A DNA stretch of 64,000 nucleotides from Deltaproteobacteria bacterium (lineage in GTDB: Bacteria > SAR324 > JACQKK01): the NCBI GenBank assembly GCA_029858505.1, contig JAOUEW010000001.1, positions 620,001-684,000 on the forward strand, given 5' to 3'. Below are positions 4,748-46,673 of this stretch, piece by piece. The notes under the pieces are model-generated. The model did not search any database. It was not told where the DNA came from and saw only the letters and a list, made by a program, of their open reading frames with translations. Within the stretch, counting starts at the first letter, position 1. Every line of letters begins with the position of its first letter. The position numbers were made by a program, and so were the translations under genes.

Positions 4748-4855
4748 TGCCGTTGGGAGCAGGGGAGGGGTGCTGTTGCTGTTCCCGTAAGACACCCCTC
4801 CCTGGCGGCTAGGCCGCCTTTCCCTCCCCTTCGTGGAGGGACAAGAATCGAATCC
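4748..4855 (+). repeat. GC-rich palindromic dispersed repeat, copy 2
   Basis: AGGGGAGGGGTG (from 4771) and CACCCCTCCCT (from 4793) form imperfect inverted arms. GGCGGC-TAG-GCCGCC (4804-4818) is a perfect small hairpin, followed by TCCCTCCCCTTCGTGGAGGG. It is the same family as the copy at 752-836, in the opposite orientation. It fills the 215-base gap between the MBL hydrolase and the acylase gene. I see no other feature in that gap. Confidence 0.6.
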
Positions 4856-24357: not shown

Positions 24358-24939
24358 ATGACCAGAAAATCTATGCGGAGATGGTCCATTCTCGGGTTAT
24401 TCATGGGATTGGTATTAACTGGTTTGGGAGCCAACGAATCTCAAGCCCAGGATACACAGCAATATTTTAGCGGCCACATTGGCGTTTCAAGGGTATGGGT
24501 GGCCCCCAGCACGGGATTAAGAAGCGCAGACGCGTTGTTTCTCATGGCAGAATATCAGTGGGTCTACAAAGACCGCGTTGGGGTTGTCCCCTTCGTCCGA
24601 ACAAACATTATTAATGGGTTTGATGGCGGAATCACCTTGCGTGTCTATCCCGGAGATGGGTTTTATTTCGGCGGCGGGGTAACAAGCAACGTTTTCCAAA
24701 CTTTTCGCTGGCAACAAAGCTGCGTGTGGGCATGCAATCAAGTTTATTATCATGTTGAAGGACCTGGTCAAATTGTTACCTTGGGCAAAGTGCTTGAGAA
24801 TGGGCTTTCGATCCAAATCAATTATCAAAACATGCGGCAGGAAATGATTGAGTACATGAACAACTCCTCCCGAGCCGTCACCCTGCGGGAAAATGTTCCC
24901 TATACCCGGGGCGATGTTTCGGTTGGAATCCGTTTCTGA
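24358..24939 (+). CDS. Secreted small beta-barrel protein, tandem paralogue 1
   Basis: 193 residues with a signal peptide (residues ~1-30, SILGLFMGLVLTGLGANESQAQ). The mature part alternates aromatic and glycine strands (VGVVPFVRTN, GGITLRVYPGDGFYFGGGV, SIQINYQNMRQEMIEY) and ends DVSVGIRF with a C-terminal Phe, as in outer-membrane barrels of about 8 strands. GGAGG precedes the ATG. It is closely similar to the next gene, especially in FYFGGGVTSN, GPGQIV.LGKV and NMRQEMIEY. No family recognised. First of four adjacent genes of this type. Confidence 0.65.
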   Translation: MTRKSMRRWSILGLFMGLVLTGLGANESQAQDTQQYFSGHIGVSRVWVAPSTGLRSADALFLMAEYQWVYKDRVGVVPFVRTNIINGFDGGITLRVYPGDGFYFGGGVTSNVFQTFRWQQSCVWACNQVYYHVEGPGQIVTLGKVLENGLSIQINYQNMRQEMIEYMNNSSRAVTLRENVPYTRGDVSVGIRF

Positions 24940-25087
24940 AGCCTTCCACTCTTCATAAGCCTTCTGGTTAAAGGGGAGTGGAGGTTTCGGGGGGGCCATG
25001 AGCGACGGGGGGGCATTGGGAGGAAAAGAAAGCCCCCACCTATTCCTTTGACTCCCCATAAAGCATACTTCTCGCGGAGGACAATCC

Positions 25088-25750
25088 ATGACAGGAACAT
25101 TGGCGTGGAAAGGGATTACCTTTGGGTTATTTATGGGATGGGTTTTGCTTGGCCTGGGCACGAGTGAATCCCAGGCCCAGGCTTCACCAGAACCCCAGGT
25201 ACAGAGTACACCAGAAGCACAGCCCCAGGTTGCGCCAGAACCCCCGGTGGAGAAAACCAAGGTATATTTGAATGTCCAACTTGGCGTTTCGAAGGTGGAG
25301 GTGACCCCCAGCACGGGGCCAAGGAAGAGTGAAATCAATTTCTTGATGGGAGAATTAGAGTGGGTTCACAAAGACCGCATAGGGGTTGTTCCTTTTTTTC
25401 GGTCCAGCCATGAAAATGGAGCCGATGTGGGAATCGCTCTGCGATTATATCCAGGAGGTGGATTTTATTTCGGCGGCGGGGTGACAAGCAATACTTTCCT
25501 GACTTATCGTGACCAAATCAATTGTTGGAATATTTTTGGTTCTTGCCGGAAGGTTTATTATGAGGCAAAAGGGCCAGGGCAAATCGTTTCTTTGGGCAAG
25601 GTGTTTGAGAGTGGGTTTTTGATCCAAATCAACCTTCAAAACATGCGGCAGGAAATGATCGAGTACAAGAACGATTCTTCCCGTGCCATCACCCTGCAGG
25701 AAATGGTGCCTTATACCCGGGGCGATGTTTCGGTTGGATACCGTTTCTGA
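25088..25750 (+). CDS. Secreted small beta-barrel protein, tandem paralogue 2
   Basis: 220 residues. It is the sister of the preceding gene, with the same signal-peptide style, the same FYFGGGVTSN and NMRQEMIEY blocks, and the same PYTRGDVSVG end (VSVGYRF). It differs by a Pro/Glu/Gln-rich linker of about 28 residues after the signal peptide (SPEPQVQSTPEAQPQVAPE), absent from paralogue 1. The downstream non-coding DNA also matches that of paralogue 1 (GTTAAAGGGGAG.GGAG), so a unit of about 720 bases including the spacer was duplicated. The role is unknown; the linker might reach peptidoglycan or a partner. Confidence 0.65.
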   Translation: MTGTLAWKGITFGLFMGWVLLGLGTSESQAQASPEPQVQSTPEAQPQVAPEPPVEKTKVYLNVQLGVSKVEVTPSTGPRKSEINFLMGELEWVHKDRIGVVPFFRSSHENGADVGIALRLYPGGGFYFGGGVTSNTFLTYRDQINCWNIFGSCRKVYYEAKGPGQIVSLGKVFESGFLIQINLQNMRQEMIEYKNDSSRAITLQEMVPYTRGDVSVGYRF

Positions 25751-25902
25751 TTCCCCCCATTCTTCAAGATCCTTCTGCTCTTCGGAGGTTAAAGGGGAGC
25801 GGAGATTTTTGGGGTGTGCCGTGTGCAATGAGGGGAGGGGGGTATTGTCGGGGAAGAAACATTGGCCATAGGTAAATTCAACCCGTGATGGAGAACGTGC
25901 CC

Positions 25903-28394: not shown

Positions 28395-28585
28395 ACCCCC
28401 CCAATATCGGGTCCGCACTCACCCACACGCTCAGCCTCGGTTCGTAATAACTCGCCCCAAAGTAATACATTCCAGTTTCGGCATCCAGTTCCTTCCCAGT
28501 AAACCTATAACTTGTCTTGTCTACGTTGTGGTGCTGGTCAAGCTAGGTTTCCCCAAACGGGAAGTATTCCAGGTGCTCGTCTGAC
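28395..28585 (-). pseudogene. Decayed Rhs core tip (remnant A)
   Basis: On the minus strand this encodes PFGET-stop-LDQHHNVDKTSYRF, then TGKELDAETGMYYFGASYYE and PRLSVWVSADPILGG, the conserved C-terminal end of an Rhs core. The Trp codon of GETW has become TAG, and no toxin follows. It lies directly downstream of the toxin/immunity pair at 28634-30493, in the same orientation. The DPILG continuation resembles the cassette at 45.4-46.6 kb rather than its neighbour. It is therefore the relic of another cassette. Confidence 0.8.
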
Positions 28586-28633
28586 TGACAAAAGTTTTAA
28601 GTTGAAAGGGGGAAGTAAAGAAAAGTTGGTGGG

Positions 28634-29257
28634 TTATTTTGGTTTATTATAATCATCCTTTTTTATTTCTATGTCATCCCCATAAATACTTTTTATTAGT
28701 GTATAAAAATAATCGTGTGGTAACGGCCTCATGCTATTATATACTTCGAATATGTCATTTATTAATAAATCTCGACCCCCCATAGACTCCTCAAATGCTT
28801 CTATAAAATCCTGTTCCCCCCCAATGATGGCGACCTCACTTGGAAGATGGGTTACTATACCCCATTTTTTTGTTTCAGGAAAAATATATGCCATGAAAGT
28901 AAAGTGAAATTTACTGTTATTATAATAATTATCAATACTTTCAACATCTTTATCTGTTATAATTTTACTTATGTTGCAATATTCTGCATTATTATTGATC
29001 TGAATAATTGGGATTTCGTTTATTCTTGAAATCTTATCTTCATAGTTTCCAGCGGAAATAAGAATTATTTTTTTAGAGCGGACGGTTTTATCGTCCGCCC
29101 CAACAATACAATGCAACTGCTCTGTTGTGATAAATGAATCCGGCAGTATATGCGCCTTCCATGTTTTATTAATAAATGGATTGTTAGGAAACAAATCCAA
29201 ATCCATTATATTATCTTCTATATCCTTTATTTTATATTCCGGCGCTAATCTTGCCAT
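28634..29257 (-). CDS. Candidate immunity protein of the adjacent Rhs toxin
   Basis: 207 residues, soluble, acidic, and very AT-rich compared with its surroundings. No family is recognised. It starts 12 bases after the stop of the Rhs cassette (29270-30493) in the same direction, the usual position of an Rhs immunity gene. The product has no signal peptide, which would fit a toxin acting in the cytoplasm. The role is inferred from position and composition only. Confidence 0.6.
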   Translation of the reverse strand: MARLAPEYKIKDIEDNIMDLDLFPNNPFINKTWKAHILPDSFITTEQLHCIVGADDKTVRSKKIILISAGNYEDKISRINEIPIIQINNNAEYCNISKIITDKDVESIDNYYNNSKFHFTFMAYIFPETKKWGIVTHLPSEVAIIGGEQDFIEAFEESMGGRDLLINDIFEVYNSMRPLPHDYFYTLIKSIYGDDIEIKKDDYNKPK

Positions 29258-29269
29258 GGTATCCCTTTA

Positions 29270-30493
29270 TTATTTTGGTTTGGTATCACCGAACCTAAAG
29301 ACAGCGGTTGCTTCACTTTTACCCGTCTCTGGATTTTTCAACCTCACCTCAATAGAGGTCTCACCTGTTTCTGAGCTTCTGTACATGGTGGCTACATTGC
29401 CATCTTTATCTGTTTTTACAATAGCCCCGTTTGGCTGGCGATCAACTTCCCCTGGCATAGCAGCAAAATCTTTTTCCGCTTGTTCTCTGCCTCCCTTTCT
29501 TTCATATTGCGGCCCATGTGTTTTGGTGGTTTGCTTTTCAGATCGTGTAGCATTATTAAGCATACCTTTAAACGCCGATCTAATATCTTTTTTTACTTCA
29601 TTCGCCGCAAGGTGAGCCGCTAACCGCCCTAATTGCTTTCCTGCCGTGACCTCTCCTCCCACTGGAATAGTCGCCAACTCAGCGAAATCCATCCCTCGTT
29701 CAAGGGCGGTGGGGCTATGTTGAATTTCAGACTCCGGCCCGGGCGCATTGGCTACATCGGGCTCGTACAGCATGTATGCCACAACCACCGCAGGGGCGAC
29801 AAACCAGATAAAGTTTCCGTCAGGGTCTGTAAACTTAACAGGGTTACTTCCCGCATATGTATACAGTGAAATATTTCCAGGGCGATAGACCCCTCCCATC
29901 CCTGGAAGTCTTTTCCCCTTCTCTTTATCACCCGTCGGAAGGTATTTTTCCAAATACTTATCAGGGCTGACCCAAATACTCAGCCTCGGCTCGTAATACC
30001 TCGCCCCAAAGTAATACAACCCCGTCTCCTGGTCGTACTCTTTTCCTGTGAATCTATAACTTGTTTTGTCTACGTTGTGGTTCTGGTCAAGCCAGGTCTC
30101 CCCGAAAGGGAAGTATTCCAGGTGTTCAACTGGTTTCCCCTCGGCGTTGGTGACCGTGCTGACGGAGCCCAAGTGGTCGGAGTGATGGAAGTAGAGGTGC
30201 TCCCCATTCTTCCCAAGCTGCACCACCACATCCTGCGCTTCGCCCTGAAGGTTTTTATTTTTTACGGTATTTTGAGCGTGCTGGCCAGCTGTCGCCGAAC
30301 GGTGTTCCAGCCCCCGCCCAGGGAATTCCCCCGTATAGTGGGGGTTCTTCAGCGTGTTCTGAGCGTGCGCCGCACCCTGTTCCGAGCGGTGCTCCACCCC
30401 CTGGCCGGGGAGCGCACCCGTTGCTCCCCCGGCCCCCTTGCCCTTTCCATTGCCCAAACCCTGACCATTGGATTCAGGCTGTTTCCCCTCCAC
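29270..30493 (-). CDS. Rhs-family C-terminal tip with toxin domain (cassette B, 5'-truncated)
   Basis: 407 residues from a GTG start. Residues ~90-200 are the end of an Rhs/YD core: LYFHHSDHLGSVSTVTN, LEYFPFGETW, YRFTGKEYDQETGLYYFGAR and YYEPRLSIW. About 230 variable residues follow after KFTDPDGN, presumably the toxin, with a hydrophobic stretch (FVAPAVVVAYMLY) and a basic, Thr/Lys-rich end (EVKKDIRSAFKGML, FRFGDTKPK). The toxin is not recognised. The several hundred residues of a full Rhs shell are absent. The frame runs up to a TAA at about 30637 with no better start, inside a dispersed repeat. It may be a silent tip used by recombination. A near-identical segment lies at 46060-46673. Confidence 0.7.
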   Translation of the reverse strand: MEGKQPESNGQGLGNGKGKGAGGATGALPGQGVEHRSEQGAAHAQNTLKNPHYTGEFPGRGLEHRSATAGQHAQNTVKNKNLQGEAQDVVVQLGKNGEHLYFHHSDHLGSVSTVTNAEGKPVEHLEYFPFGETWLDQNHNVDKTSYRFTGKEYDQETGLYYFGARYYEPRLSIWVSPDKYLEKYLPTGDKEKGKRLPGMGGVYRPGNISLYTYAGSNPVKFTDPDGNFIWFVAPAVVVAYMLYEPDVANAPGPESEIQHSPTALERGMDFAELATIPVGGEVTAGKQLGRLAAHLAANEVKKDIRSAFKGMLNNATRSEKQTTKTHGPQYERKGGREQAEKDFAAMPGEVDRQPNGAIVKTDKDGNVATMYRSSETGETSIEVRLKNPETGKSEATAVFRFGDTKPK

Positions 30494-30630
30494 GAAGGGG
30501 AGGGGATGCCCCGCCAGGGGCAGGGGAGGGGTGCTGTTTTCGGGAGAGGGGGTGGCGGCACCGCCGCCGGGGGTGAGGTCCTTCTTCCCCTTCCCGTCGG
30601 GGAGGGGTTGGGGTGGGGTGCTGTTTGGAG
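30486..30630 (-). repeat. GC-rich dispersed repeat, copy 3, at the 5' end of Rhs cassette B
   Basis: On the minus strand: GCACCCCTCCCCTGCCCC, TGGCGGGGCATCCCC, TCCCCTTCGTGGAGG. A second partial arm (AACAGCACCCCACCCC and TCCCCGACGGGAAGG) lies at about 30590-30625. The element is read through in the Rhs frame as a Pro-rich stretch. Copy 4 stands at the same place in the other cassette, so the repeat marks the common 5' boundary. Confidence 0.6.
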
Positions 30631-44555: not shown

Positions 44556-44656
44556 CACCCCTGCCCCTGGCGAGGCATTTCCAACAGCGGAGTGATGGAA
44601 GTAAAGGTGCTCCCCCGACTTGCCCAATTGTAGCACAACGTCTTGAGGGTCGCCAG
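44556..44656 (-). pseudogene. Rhs core remnant D with partial dispersed repeat
   Basis: On the minus strand GDPQDVVLQLGKSGEHLYFH and HS can be read. This is the block that precedes HSDHLGS in both Rhs cassettes, but it then runs into TGGAAATGCC and the partial repeat CACCCCTGCCCCTGGC rather than the rest of the core. It lies downstream of the toxin/immunity pair at 44747-46580, just as remnant A lies downstream of the other pair. Non-coding today. Confidence 0.75.
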
Positions 44657-44746
44657 AAAGGAGGGGGTGGGGATGGAGGGAGAGGGAAAAGGAAAGCCCA
44701 GGGGGTTAGCCTGGGCTTGGATAAAAGTTAAAAACATCCCCATTTT

Positions 44747-45268
44747 CTAACCTTCGGGGTCAGTATAGTAAAAAATAAATTCTTTACCATCCCAAAATAA
44801 TAATAAACCGTCAGTTTCTTCCATTCCAACACTAATAATTTCCCCTTTTGCTCGTTTTTCGTATGGGTTTTGACTTTTATTACTAAAGTCGTCGAATACA
44901 TAAAAGCGAACATAATTTCTTAAATCATCAACGACAGAATTATTTTCACTATCAAAAATTTTTGTTTTAATCCCGGCAGAAATAATATAATGCTCATTGT
45001 TTTTTATGTTGCAAACTAAAATACCTTCTTTTTTTGTTTTTTTATGACGGATCATGATAGCTAAATCATTAACACCATCTCCATCATAATCTAGCCGTAG
45101 ATAATACGGATTATTCCGTCTTAATGGATCGTATTCTTTTTCAATTTTCCTAAAGCACAGAAACCCTTCCAAGCTAATATTCCATCTTTCATTCGCCATG
45201 GATTGTTGCGGCCATGCCATTGCAATAAAAACATAACATAATACTATTTTAATGGTTCCGGGTTTCAT
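44747..45268 (-). CDS. Exported candidate immunity protein of the second Rhs toxin
   Basis: 173 residues from MKPGTIKIVLCYVFIAMAWP, a signal peptide with cleavage near QQSMA-NE. The product should be periplasmic. The mature part has an Asp-rich loop YDGDGVNDLAIMI and ends FYYTDPEG. AGGAG lies 9 bases before the ATG at 45268; an upstream in-frame ATG at 45274 is too close to it, and the frame's first ATG (45325) would mask the signal. Strongly AT-rich. Directly downstream of the Rhs tip at 45408-46580. A periplasmic location fits a toxin that attacks peptidoglycan. No family recognised. Confidence 0.6.
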   Translation of the reverse strand: MKPGTIKIVLCYVFIAMAWPQQSMANERWNISLEGFLCFRKIEKEYDPLRRNNPYYLRLDYDGDGVNDLAIMIRHKKTKKEGILVCNIKNNEHYIISAGIKTKIFDSENNSVVDDLRNYVRFYVFDDFSNKSQNPYEKRAKGEIISVGMEETDGLLLFWDGKEFIFYYTDPEG

Positions 45269-45407
45269 TTCCATATTCTCCTGTTGTTTATTAATATCGT
45301 GAGCCCATGTGCCCATGATCTTCATGATCTTTCACATATGTTGCATGGCCCATTATTCCCAACCCTGCTCCGCGGTAGTTTTGATTAAACCCGTGTTTTT
45401 CACCCAA

Positions 45408-46580
45408 TTAAAATAACAATCCCACTCTGTTGGCATCAGCATACCCCGCGGCCCAATCATTTTGAATCGGTTTTCCATCGCTTCCCATGTATCTAAAGTC
45501 AAATGCTCTCCCATGGTTATGGGATTTATGCGGGCCGAAGTGGGCCCCAGAAGCTATACCCGCATCAGTAATGACAAGATTTGCATCGTTCGGATGGGCA
45601 ACGTAATAGTCGCCCTGCAAATTGAATGATGCTGCGGCGCGTTCGGGATATAAATAGGCTTTGGATCTGTCCTTAAGATCAAACCGTGCGCCACCACCAC
45701 GACGCGCCTCTGGGCGACCAGCGAAAGCTCCTCGAGCTGAACTTTTCATATCCGCTAAACTAACCATCCCATCTTTATTGGCGTTAACTGATCGTATCTC
45801 GCGATTCGATAAATACAAGTGAACACGGTTTCCTTCAACTGCCGCCGCAGAAGCCCTACATTTCTCACACTTTTTATCCGACCATTCATACCCTTTCCCA
45901 CCTTCACGAAGGCTCCACCATTTCCCATTGGGGTCAATGTACAGAATGGGGTTCAATCTCCCATAAGAATACAGGGAAAGATTGCCTAGAGAATACACCC
46001 CCCCATTGGGTTTCCCTCCCATGTAACTTCCCAAAATCGGATCAGTACTCGTCCAAATACTTAACCTAGGCTCGTAATACCTCGCCCCAAAGTAATACAA
46101 CCCCGTCTCCTGGTCGTACTCTTTCCCGGTGAACCTATAACTTGTCTTGTCTACGTTGTGGTGCTGGTCAAGCCAGGTTTCCCCGAAGGGGAAGTATTCC
46201 AAATGCTCAACCGGTTTTCCGTCGGCATTCGTAACGGTGCTGACGCTCCCCAGGTGGTCGGAATGATGGAAGTAAAGGTGCTCCCCATTCTTCCCAAGCT
46301 GCACCACCACATCCTGCGCTTCGCCCTGAAGGTTCTTATTTTTTACGGTATTTTGAGCGTGCTGGCCAGCTGTCGCCGAACGGTGTTCCAGCCCCCGCCC
46401 AGGGAATTCCCCCGTGTAGTGTGGGTTCTTCAGCGTGTTCTGAGCGTGCGCCGCACCCTGTTCCGAGCGGTGCTCCACCCCCTGGCCAGGGAGCGCACCC
46501 GTTGCTCCCCCGGCTCCCTTGCCCTTACCCTTTCCATCGGCCAACCCCTGACCATTGGATTCAGGCGTTTGCCCCTCCAC
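45408..46580 (-). CDS. Rhs-family C-terminal tip with M15-like peptidase toxin (cassette C, 5'-truncated)
   Basis: 390 residues from a GTG at 46580. The frame is open further, to 46859, but there it overlaps the desaturase gene and has no family features. The N-terminal half is the same Rhs core tip as cassette B (HSDHLGSVSTVTNADG, EYFPFGETW, YYEPRLSIWTSTDPILGSYM). After LYIDPNGKW comes a different toxin of about 160 residues. Its last third has HFGPHKSHNHGRAFDFRY, which contains the full M15/LAS zinc-peptidase motif H-x2-G-x-A-x-D. That predicts cleavage of peptidoglycan peptides. Two CxxC-like cysteines (KKCEKC) open the toxin. The N-terminal shell is absent. Confidence 0.7.
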   Translation of the reverse strand: MEGQTPESNGQGLADGKGKGKGAGGATGALPGQGVEHRSEQGAAHAQNTLKNPHYTGEFPGRGLEHRSATAGQHAQNTVKNKNLQGEAQDVVVQLGKNGEHLYFHHSDHLGSVSTVTNADGKPVEHLEYFPFGETWLDQHHNVDKTSYRFTGKEYDQETGLYYFGARYYEPRLSIWTSTDPILGSYMGGKPNGGVYSLGNLSLYSYGRLNPILYIDPNGKWWSLREGGKGYEWSDKKCEKCRASAAAVEGNRVHLYLSNREIRSVNANKDGMVSLADMKSSARGAFAGRPEARRGGGARFDLKDRSKAYLYPERAAASFNLQGDYYVAHPNDANLVITDAGIASGAHFGPHKSHNHGRAFDFRYMGSDGKPIQNDWAAGYADANRVGLLF

Positions 46581-46673
46581 GAAGGGGAGGGGATGCCCCG
46601 CCAGGGGCAGGGGAGGGGTGCTGTTTTCGGGAGAGGGGGCTGCGGCACCGCCGCCGGGGGTGAGGTCCTTCTC
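46568..46673 (-). repeat. GC-rich dispersed repeat, copy 4, at the 5' end of Rhs cassette C
   Basis: Almost identical to copy 3 (AGCACCCCTCCCCTGCCCC, TGGCGGGGCATCCCC, TCCCCTTCGTGGAGG on the minus strand). Identity with the 30.5-kb locus ends at about 46673, next to GGTGAGGTCCTTCT. Beyond that the flanks are unrelated. Confidence 0.6.

What the first reader, a model, noticed from the sequence alone, without database searches (positions are those of the whole stretch)
44556..46673. Second Rhs tip carries an M15-type peptidoglycan peptidase motif and an exported immunity candidate
The toxin end contains SHNHGRAFD, which fits the complete M15/LAS zinc motif H-x2-G-x-A-x-D. The adjacent AT-rich gene encodes a protein with a clear signal peptide. 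Toxin target (cell wall) and immunity location (periplasm) therefore agree, which is independent support for the pairing. The other cassette has a non-exported immunity candidate, so the two tips probably attack different compartments.
Basis: partly seen in the sequence, partly recalled or inferred. Interest (0 to 1): 0.65.

Follow-up and report, generated by a model that had tools for sequence, protein, structure and literature searches.

The report
Broken orphan Rhs cell-wall toxin tip
This is a leftover end piece of a bacterial competition toxin, related to the cell-wall-cutting enzyme MepA, sitting next to its probable periplasmic immunity gene; a stop codon cuts the enzyme before half of its metal site, so as sequenced it is most likely an inactive remnant of an otherwise familiar kind of system.

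Summary
The motif and the exported neighbour are real. The 'complete M15 zinc motif' reading is not. SHNHGRAFD (45498-45524, - strand) is only the first half of a LAS-type zinc site. An in-frame TAA at 45408-45410 cuts the tip before the second half. The same frame then stays open for 38 codons (45294-45407), carries H-x2-H-x-H (45309-45326) and ends in TAATAA just upstream of the neighbour's Shine-Dalgarno. By homology the domain belongs with M74/MepA-like DD-endopeptidases, not VanX/VanY-type M15: M74-like profile E~1e-6 to 2.5e-9, hhalign 96.5% probability, and that family's profile hits E. coli MepA at E=1.4e-7. Three conserved His/Asp positions lie before the TAA and three after it. The tip rides on a ~0.6 kb Rhs-core fragment with no good start. 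A near-identical core fragment carries a different tip 16 kb away, and more core fragments lie elsewhere in the genome. No full-length Rhs was found. Best reading: a displaced ('orphan') Rhs-CT/immunity cassette whose peptidoglycan-endopeptidase tip has been interrupted, with an intact signal-peptide immunity candidate. New member of a known kind, moderate-low interest. No usable structure model was obtained.

The parts
45411..46673 (-). Rhs-core fragment plus toxin tip up to the in-frame stop; no ATG at its start, only GTG/TTG codons without a good ribosome-binding site
45924..46196 (-). Rhs_assc_core domain (TIGR03696), 71.5 bits
46023..46322 (-). Rhs-core stretch 87% identical to 29942-30241 of the other cassette; dN 0.022, dS 0.78 over 76 codons of the core
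45498..45530 (-). first half of LAS/MepA-type site: H-x2-H-x2-G-x3-D (HKSHNHGRAFD)
45408..45410 (-). in-frame TAA that interrupts the toxin domain; same frame on both sides, no frameshift
45294..45407 (-). 38-codon continuation of the toxin frame behind the TAA, carrying H-x2-H-x-H at 45309-45326; followed by TAATAA at 45288-45293
44747..45268 (-). 173-aa immunity candidate with signal peptide; AGGAG about 9 nt upstream of the ATG
   Evidence: no credible family match
44588..44661 (-). second, short Rhs-core fragment 3' of the immunity gene (74% identical to 30178-30251)
28400..30585 (-). the sister orphan cassette: same core fragment, unrelated tip, non-exported immunity candidate 28634-29257

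Best explanation
This is a displaced (orphan) Rhs-CT/immunity cassette. Its toxin domain is a MepA/M74-like LAS zinc endopeptidase that, in its intact form, would cut peptide cross-links of the target cell's peptidoglycan in the periplasm. The neighbouring exported protein would be the periplasmic immunity protein that blocks it. As sequenced, the toxin is interrupted by an in-frame TAA between the two halves of its metal site, and it lacks a good start, so the toxin half is most likely silent and catalytically dead while the immunity gene is intact. Shown: the Rhs core, homology of the domain to M74-like peptidases, conservation of six His/Asp positions spread across the TAA, the interruption, the signal peptide, and the orphan anatomy. 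Inferred: endopeptidase activity, the toxin-immunity interaction, the delivery route, and that the TAA reflects real decay rather than a sequencing error.
For: Rhs_assc_core 67-71 bits, well over the cut-off of 32.5. Intact distant homologue in a class-mate genome (G051, L014), 32% identical, E=1.8e-5, with no stop inside and carrying both motifs. Domain invariants H-x2-H-x2-G-x3-D-x-R...DG...H-x2-H-x-H across window, G051 and Nostoc. The Nostoc relative matches PF03411 at 4.4e-5, and its plasmid relatives match it at 7e-9 to 4.5e-17. A profile of that set finds the window tip at E~1e-6 with G051 excluded and ~2.5e-9 with it included. hhalign of window+G051 against that set gives 96.5% probability, E=1e-9, aligned through the second motif. 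The same set hits E. coli MepA (1tzp/1u10) at 1.4e-7 over the first motif; the second motif aligns only weakly. The stretch behind the TAA is open and carries H..H.H in only 5.5e-5 of nucleotide shuffles, and it ends in TAATAA just before the immunity gene's SD. The two copies of the core differ with dN 0.022 and dS 0.78, so the core was under purifying selection as protein. No full-length Rhs, SpvB or VipB found in the genome.
Against: The toxin domain itself has no significant direct Pfam, PHROGs or NCBIfam match; the M74 link is transitive. No usable structure model was obtained (pLDDT 31). The immunity candidate has no detectable relative anywhere searched, and it does not resemble the exported neighbour of the G051 homologue. 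The G051 homologue is cut off at a contig end, so its Rhs context is not shown. A sequencing error at the TAA is not excluded.
Confidence: 0.72

Rival explanations
1. The TAA is a sequencing or assembly error and the tip is an intact, functional MepA-like toxin domain.
For: The frame is preserved exactly on both sides, and all six conserved positions and the natural TAATAA end are intact. The genome is a 14-contig assembly with 4% estimated contamination.
Against: Isolated substitution errors are less usual than indels in long-read assemblies (general knowledge; the sequencing method is not known here). The ORF also lacks a start and the rest of the Rhs body, so decay is expected anyway. Reads are not available.
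Confidence: 0.15
2. The exported 173-aa gene and not the toxin is the functional part: a retained immunity gene that protects against rivals that still deploy this tip (orphan immunity).
For: Intact ORF with SD and signal peptide next to a broken toxin. The genome holds another immunity gene of the cassette-1 type next to only a short Rhs fragment (L006). Orphan Rhs immunity proteins that protect are shown in Serratia (PMC10539506).
Against: No test of selection was possible: no relatives of the immunity candidate were found. Compatible with, not exclusive of, the best explanation.
Confidence: 0.4
3. One reading: a complete VanX/VanY-type (M15) peptidase toxin, functional as annotated.
For: SHNHGRAFD fits the generic LAS motif.
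Against: No M15 Pfam match. The closest typed relatives are M74. The later motif is H-x-H behind a stop, while VanX has E-x-x-H (PMC3927764). The ORF to the TAA lacks the third ligand.
Confidence: 0.04
4. The TAA is read through in the cell, so full-length toxin is made at low level.
For: The frame stays open and conserved behind it.
Against: TAA is usually an efficient stop (general knowledge). The orphan ORF lacks a good start. The same cassette uses TAATAA as the apparent natural end of the toxin frame.
Confidence: 0.03

Closest known systems
MepA, penicillin-insensitive murein endopeptidase (MEROPS M74, PF03411; PDB 1tzp/1u10)
   Same: H-x2-H-x2-G-x3-D and H-x2-H-x-H motifs with matching spacing within each motif, linked through a chain of significant profile matches
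   Different: Shorter domain (~115-130 aa against ~230), no direct Pfam hit, fused to an Rhs core, interrupted by a stop codon
Orphan rhs-CT/rhsI modules of enterobacteria (e.g. Salmonella LT2, PMC3967940)
   Same: Displaced tip with a short piece of core, immunity gene behind it, no good translation initiation signals
   Different: No full-length main rhs gene found in this genome; here the toxin domain itself is also interrupted
MepA-like DD-peptidase domains in WHIX T6SS effectors (PMC12135965)
   Same: M74/MepA-like peptidase used as an antibacterial effector domain
   Different: Those are T6SS WHIX effectors; this one is on an Rhs core, and no VipB was found in this genome or its family
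SpvB/TcaC-N-terminal Rhs proteins (e.g. on Aliiroseovarius crassostreae plasmids)
   Same: Closest Rhs core found, up to 58% identical
   Different: Only the core tail is present here; no SpvB N-terminal domain was found in the genome

Membership tests
Rhs toxin (orphan Rhs-CT/immunity cassette) | Rhs-associated core directly upstream of the tip | tested here: met
   TIGR03696, 67-71 bits
Rhs toxin (orphan Rhs-CT/immunity cassette) | variable tip and immunity gene behind a conserved core shared with other tips | tested here: met
Rhs toxin (orphan Rhs-CT/immunity cassette) | lack of good initiation signals and of the rest of the Rhs body | tested here: met
Rhs toxin (orphan Rhs-CT/immunity cassette) | full-length main rhs gene in the same genome (usual, not strictly required for an orphan module) | tested here: not met
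   the genome is estimated 97% complete, so not absolutely excluded
M74 / MepA endopeptidase | direct match above the PF03411 gathering score | tested here: not met
   only relatives of the tip match. Hence called M74/MepA-like, not a filed member
M74 / MepA endopeptidase | homology through intermediates covering both zinc motifs | tested here: met
M74 / MepA endopeptidase | both ligand motifs within one uninterrupted reading frame | tested here: not met
   TAA at 45408-45410
M74 / MepA endopeptidase | zinc-dependent DD-endopeptidase activity | not testable with these tools
   needs biochemistry
M15 (VanX/VanY) peptidase | match to an M15 Pfam model or an E-x-x-H second motif (VanX) | tested here: not met
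   VanX motif from PMC3927764
LAS metallopeptidase fold | predicted fold with the ligands in one site | tested here: inconclusive
   single-sequence model, pLDDT 31
periplasmic immunity protein | signal peptide | tested here: met
   hydropathy and cleavage-site inspection; no SignalP available
periplasmic immunity protein | binds and inhibits the cognate toxin | not testable with these tools
   needs binding assay

The most novel reading that the evidence does not exclude
A compact M74/MepA-like domain is a not yet catalogued Rhs tip family with its own exported immunity family, in a poorly sampled phylum where no T6SS sheath gene (VipB) was found in the ten genomes of the family searched and where Rhs survives in this genome only as orphan tips and immunity genes.
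Probability: 0.4. Interest if true: 0.4.

Novelty: new member of a known kind. Interest (0 to 1): 0.3.

Why it matters
It adds a MepA-like endopeptidase to the repertoire of Rhs tips and shows how a toxin tip can decay while its immunity gene stays intact. It also shows that a short catalytic motif in a raw ORF can be half a site: here the second half lay just behind an in-frame stop.

Tried and rejected
Genome-contig scan: two hits (L016, L017) are chance matches to a peptide of a DNA glycosylase-like gene. Viral contigs (six scans) and phages (three tblastn searches): no relatives. Searches of three other phyla with alignments A2/A5: nothing. Sucrose porin and laccase PDB matches to the tip are weak chance matches without the second motif. 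Immunity candidate: best Pfam hit is a satellite-RNA protein below the cut-off, rejected. M15/VanX assignment rejected (see membership test). T6SS delivery: no VipB in the genome or its family.

Full report
Observation. On the - strand an ORF open from about 46870 to 45411 carries an Rhs-associated core (TIGR03696, 67-71 bits) followed by a tip with SHNHGRAFD at 45498-45524. The 173-aa neighbour (44747-45268) has an AGGAG about 9 nt upstream and a typical signal peptide ending SMA|NE; the other cassette's candidate has none. These parts of the finding hold.

The tip's frame is stopped by TAA at 45408-45410, only about 30 residues behind the motif. Behind it the same frame runs on for 38 codons (LGEKHGFNQNYRGAGLGIMGHATYVKDHEDHGHMGSRY) to TAATAA, a few bases before the AGGAG of the immunity gene. 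That stretch holds H-x2-H-x-H. Nucleotide shuffles of it are both open and carry that motif in 5.5e-5 of cases. So the natural end of the toxin is most likely at 45294, and the sequenced gene is interrupted between the two halves of its active site. There is no frameshift. The genome holds no second copy of the tip. An ORF ending at the TAA would lack the H-x-H that supplies the third zinc ligand in MepA-type enzymes; VanX uses E-x-x-H there (PMC3927764).

What the domain is. Pfam, PHROGs and NCBIfam give no direct significant match. An intact homologue lies in a class-mate genome (G051, L014; 32% identity, E=1.8e-5). A weak tblastn hit on a Nostoc plasmid led to a set of peptidoglycan-binding or peptidase proteins from Rhizobium, Geminocystis, Herpetosiphon, Croceicoccus and Sphingopyxis plasmids, three of them annotated as penicillin-insensitive murein endopeptidase. 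Those tested match PF03411 (Peptidase_M74) at 7e-9 to 4.5e-17, and Nostoc matches it at 4.4e-5. A profile of the six without the window or G051 scores the tip at E=9.7e-7 (part before the TAA) and 2.4e-6 (whole, X at the stop), against 0.006 for the best of 2000 shuffles of the tip; with G051 included the values are 2.5e-9 and 2.9e-9. Profile-profile comparison gives 96.5% probability, E=1e-9, aligned through both motifs. The set's profile finds E. coli MepA at 1.4e-7; the first motif aligns significantly, the second only weakly (HRAHMHV). Invariant across window, G051 and Nostoc are H-x2-H-x2-G-x3-D-x-R and H-x2-H-x-H. I recall that in E. coli MepA the zinc ligands are the second His and the Asp of the first motif and the last His of the second; that is own knowledge, not tested here. 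M74 MepA cleaves the D-alanyl-meso-diaminopimelyl bond and is zinc-dependent (PMC6403190).

Structure. AlphaFold on the tip (TAA read as a placeholder residue for the fold only) and on the immunity protein, both without an alignment, gave pLDDT 31 and 37. They say nothing either way, and no fold search was run on them.

Anatomy of the cassette. The core fragment is 87% identical (300 nt) to that of the other cassette at 28.4-30.6 kb, and a further 151 nt upstream is 94% identical. The downstream tips are unrelated. Over 76 codons of the core dN is 0.022 and dS 0.78, so both copies descend from sequence under protein-level selection. Another core fragment follows each immunity gene (28400-28578 and 44588-44661). 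The genome has further fragments on C4 and C5 and, for the upstream module, on C6/C11. One of them (L006) stands next to a near-identical copy of the cassette-1 immunity gene. In-frame start candidates of the tip ORF are GTG/TTG codons without a good ribosome-binding site; one interior GTG at 46304 has AGGA at 7 nt. No full-length Rhs, SpvB domain or T6SS sheath protein was found in the genome; SpvB and the sheath protein were not found in nine family-mates either. This matches the published description of orphan rhs-CT/rhsI modules, which usually lack initiation signals and can be activated by recombination with a main rhs gene (PMC3967940), except that no main gene was found here. The core's closest relatives found are SpvB/TcaC-N-terminal Rhs proteins (58%).

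Mechanism. Intact, such a tip would be released from the Rhs shell into the target periplasm and cut peptidoglycan cross-links, and the exported neighbour would inhibit it there (inference). A second, weaker instance is the G051 homologue, which is also followed by a gene with an N-terminal signal peptide, of unrelated sequence. As sequenced, the toxin half is probably dead and silent. Whether the immunity gene is still used is open. MepA-like peptidases as antibacterial effector domains have precedent in WHIX T6SS effectors (PMC12135965), and functional orphan Rhs immunity proteins have precedent in Serratia (PMC10539506).

Verdict. The finding is partly right and ordinary in kind: a decayed orphan Rhs cassette with a MepA-like tip. 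The correction of family (M74-like instead of M15) and the interruption of the active site are the main results.

Noticed in passing
28400-30585: Sister orphan Rhs cassette with a different tip (no Pfam family for the tip) ending in a double stop, and a 207-aa non-exported immunity candidate.
   Followed up: partly
L006:765-1445 (G000:C5 near 368010): A near-identical copy of the cassette-1 immunity gene next to only a short Rhs-core fragment: an orphan immunity gene.
   Followed up: partly
L003:1035-1454 (G000:C5 near 484162): Small gene with a signal peptide just upstream of another Rhs-core fragment; no Pfam match; possibly a further orphan immunity gene.
   Followed up: no
764-817, 4793-4846, 30486-30533, 46569-46620: Repeated GC-rich palindromic element (CCCCTCCCC...GTGGAGGGG) that also lies at the 5' junction of both Rhs fragments; looks like a dispersed intergenic repeat.
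   Followed up: no
G000:C6 and G000:C11 around 75455-76662: Two contigs give the same Rhs-fragment matches at the same coordinates, suggesting redundant contigs in the assembly.
   Followed up: no
24544-25777: Direct repeats of 164-225 nt spaced about 800 nt (73-82% identity), possibly a duplicated gene.
   Followed up: no
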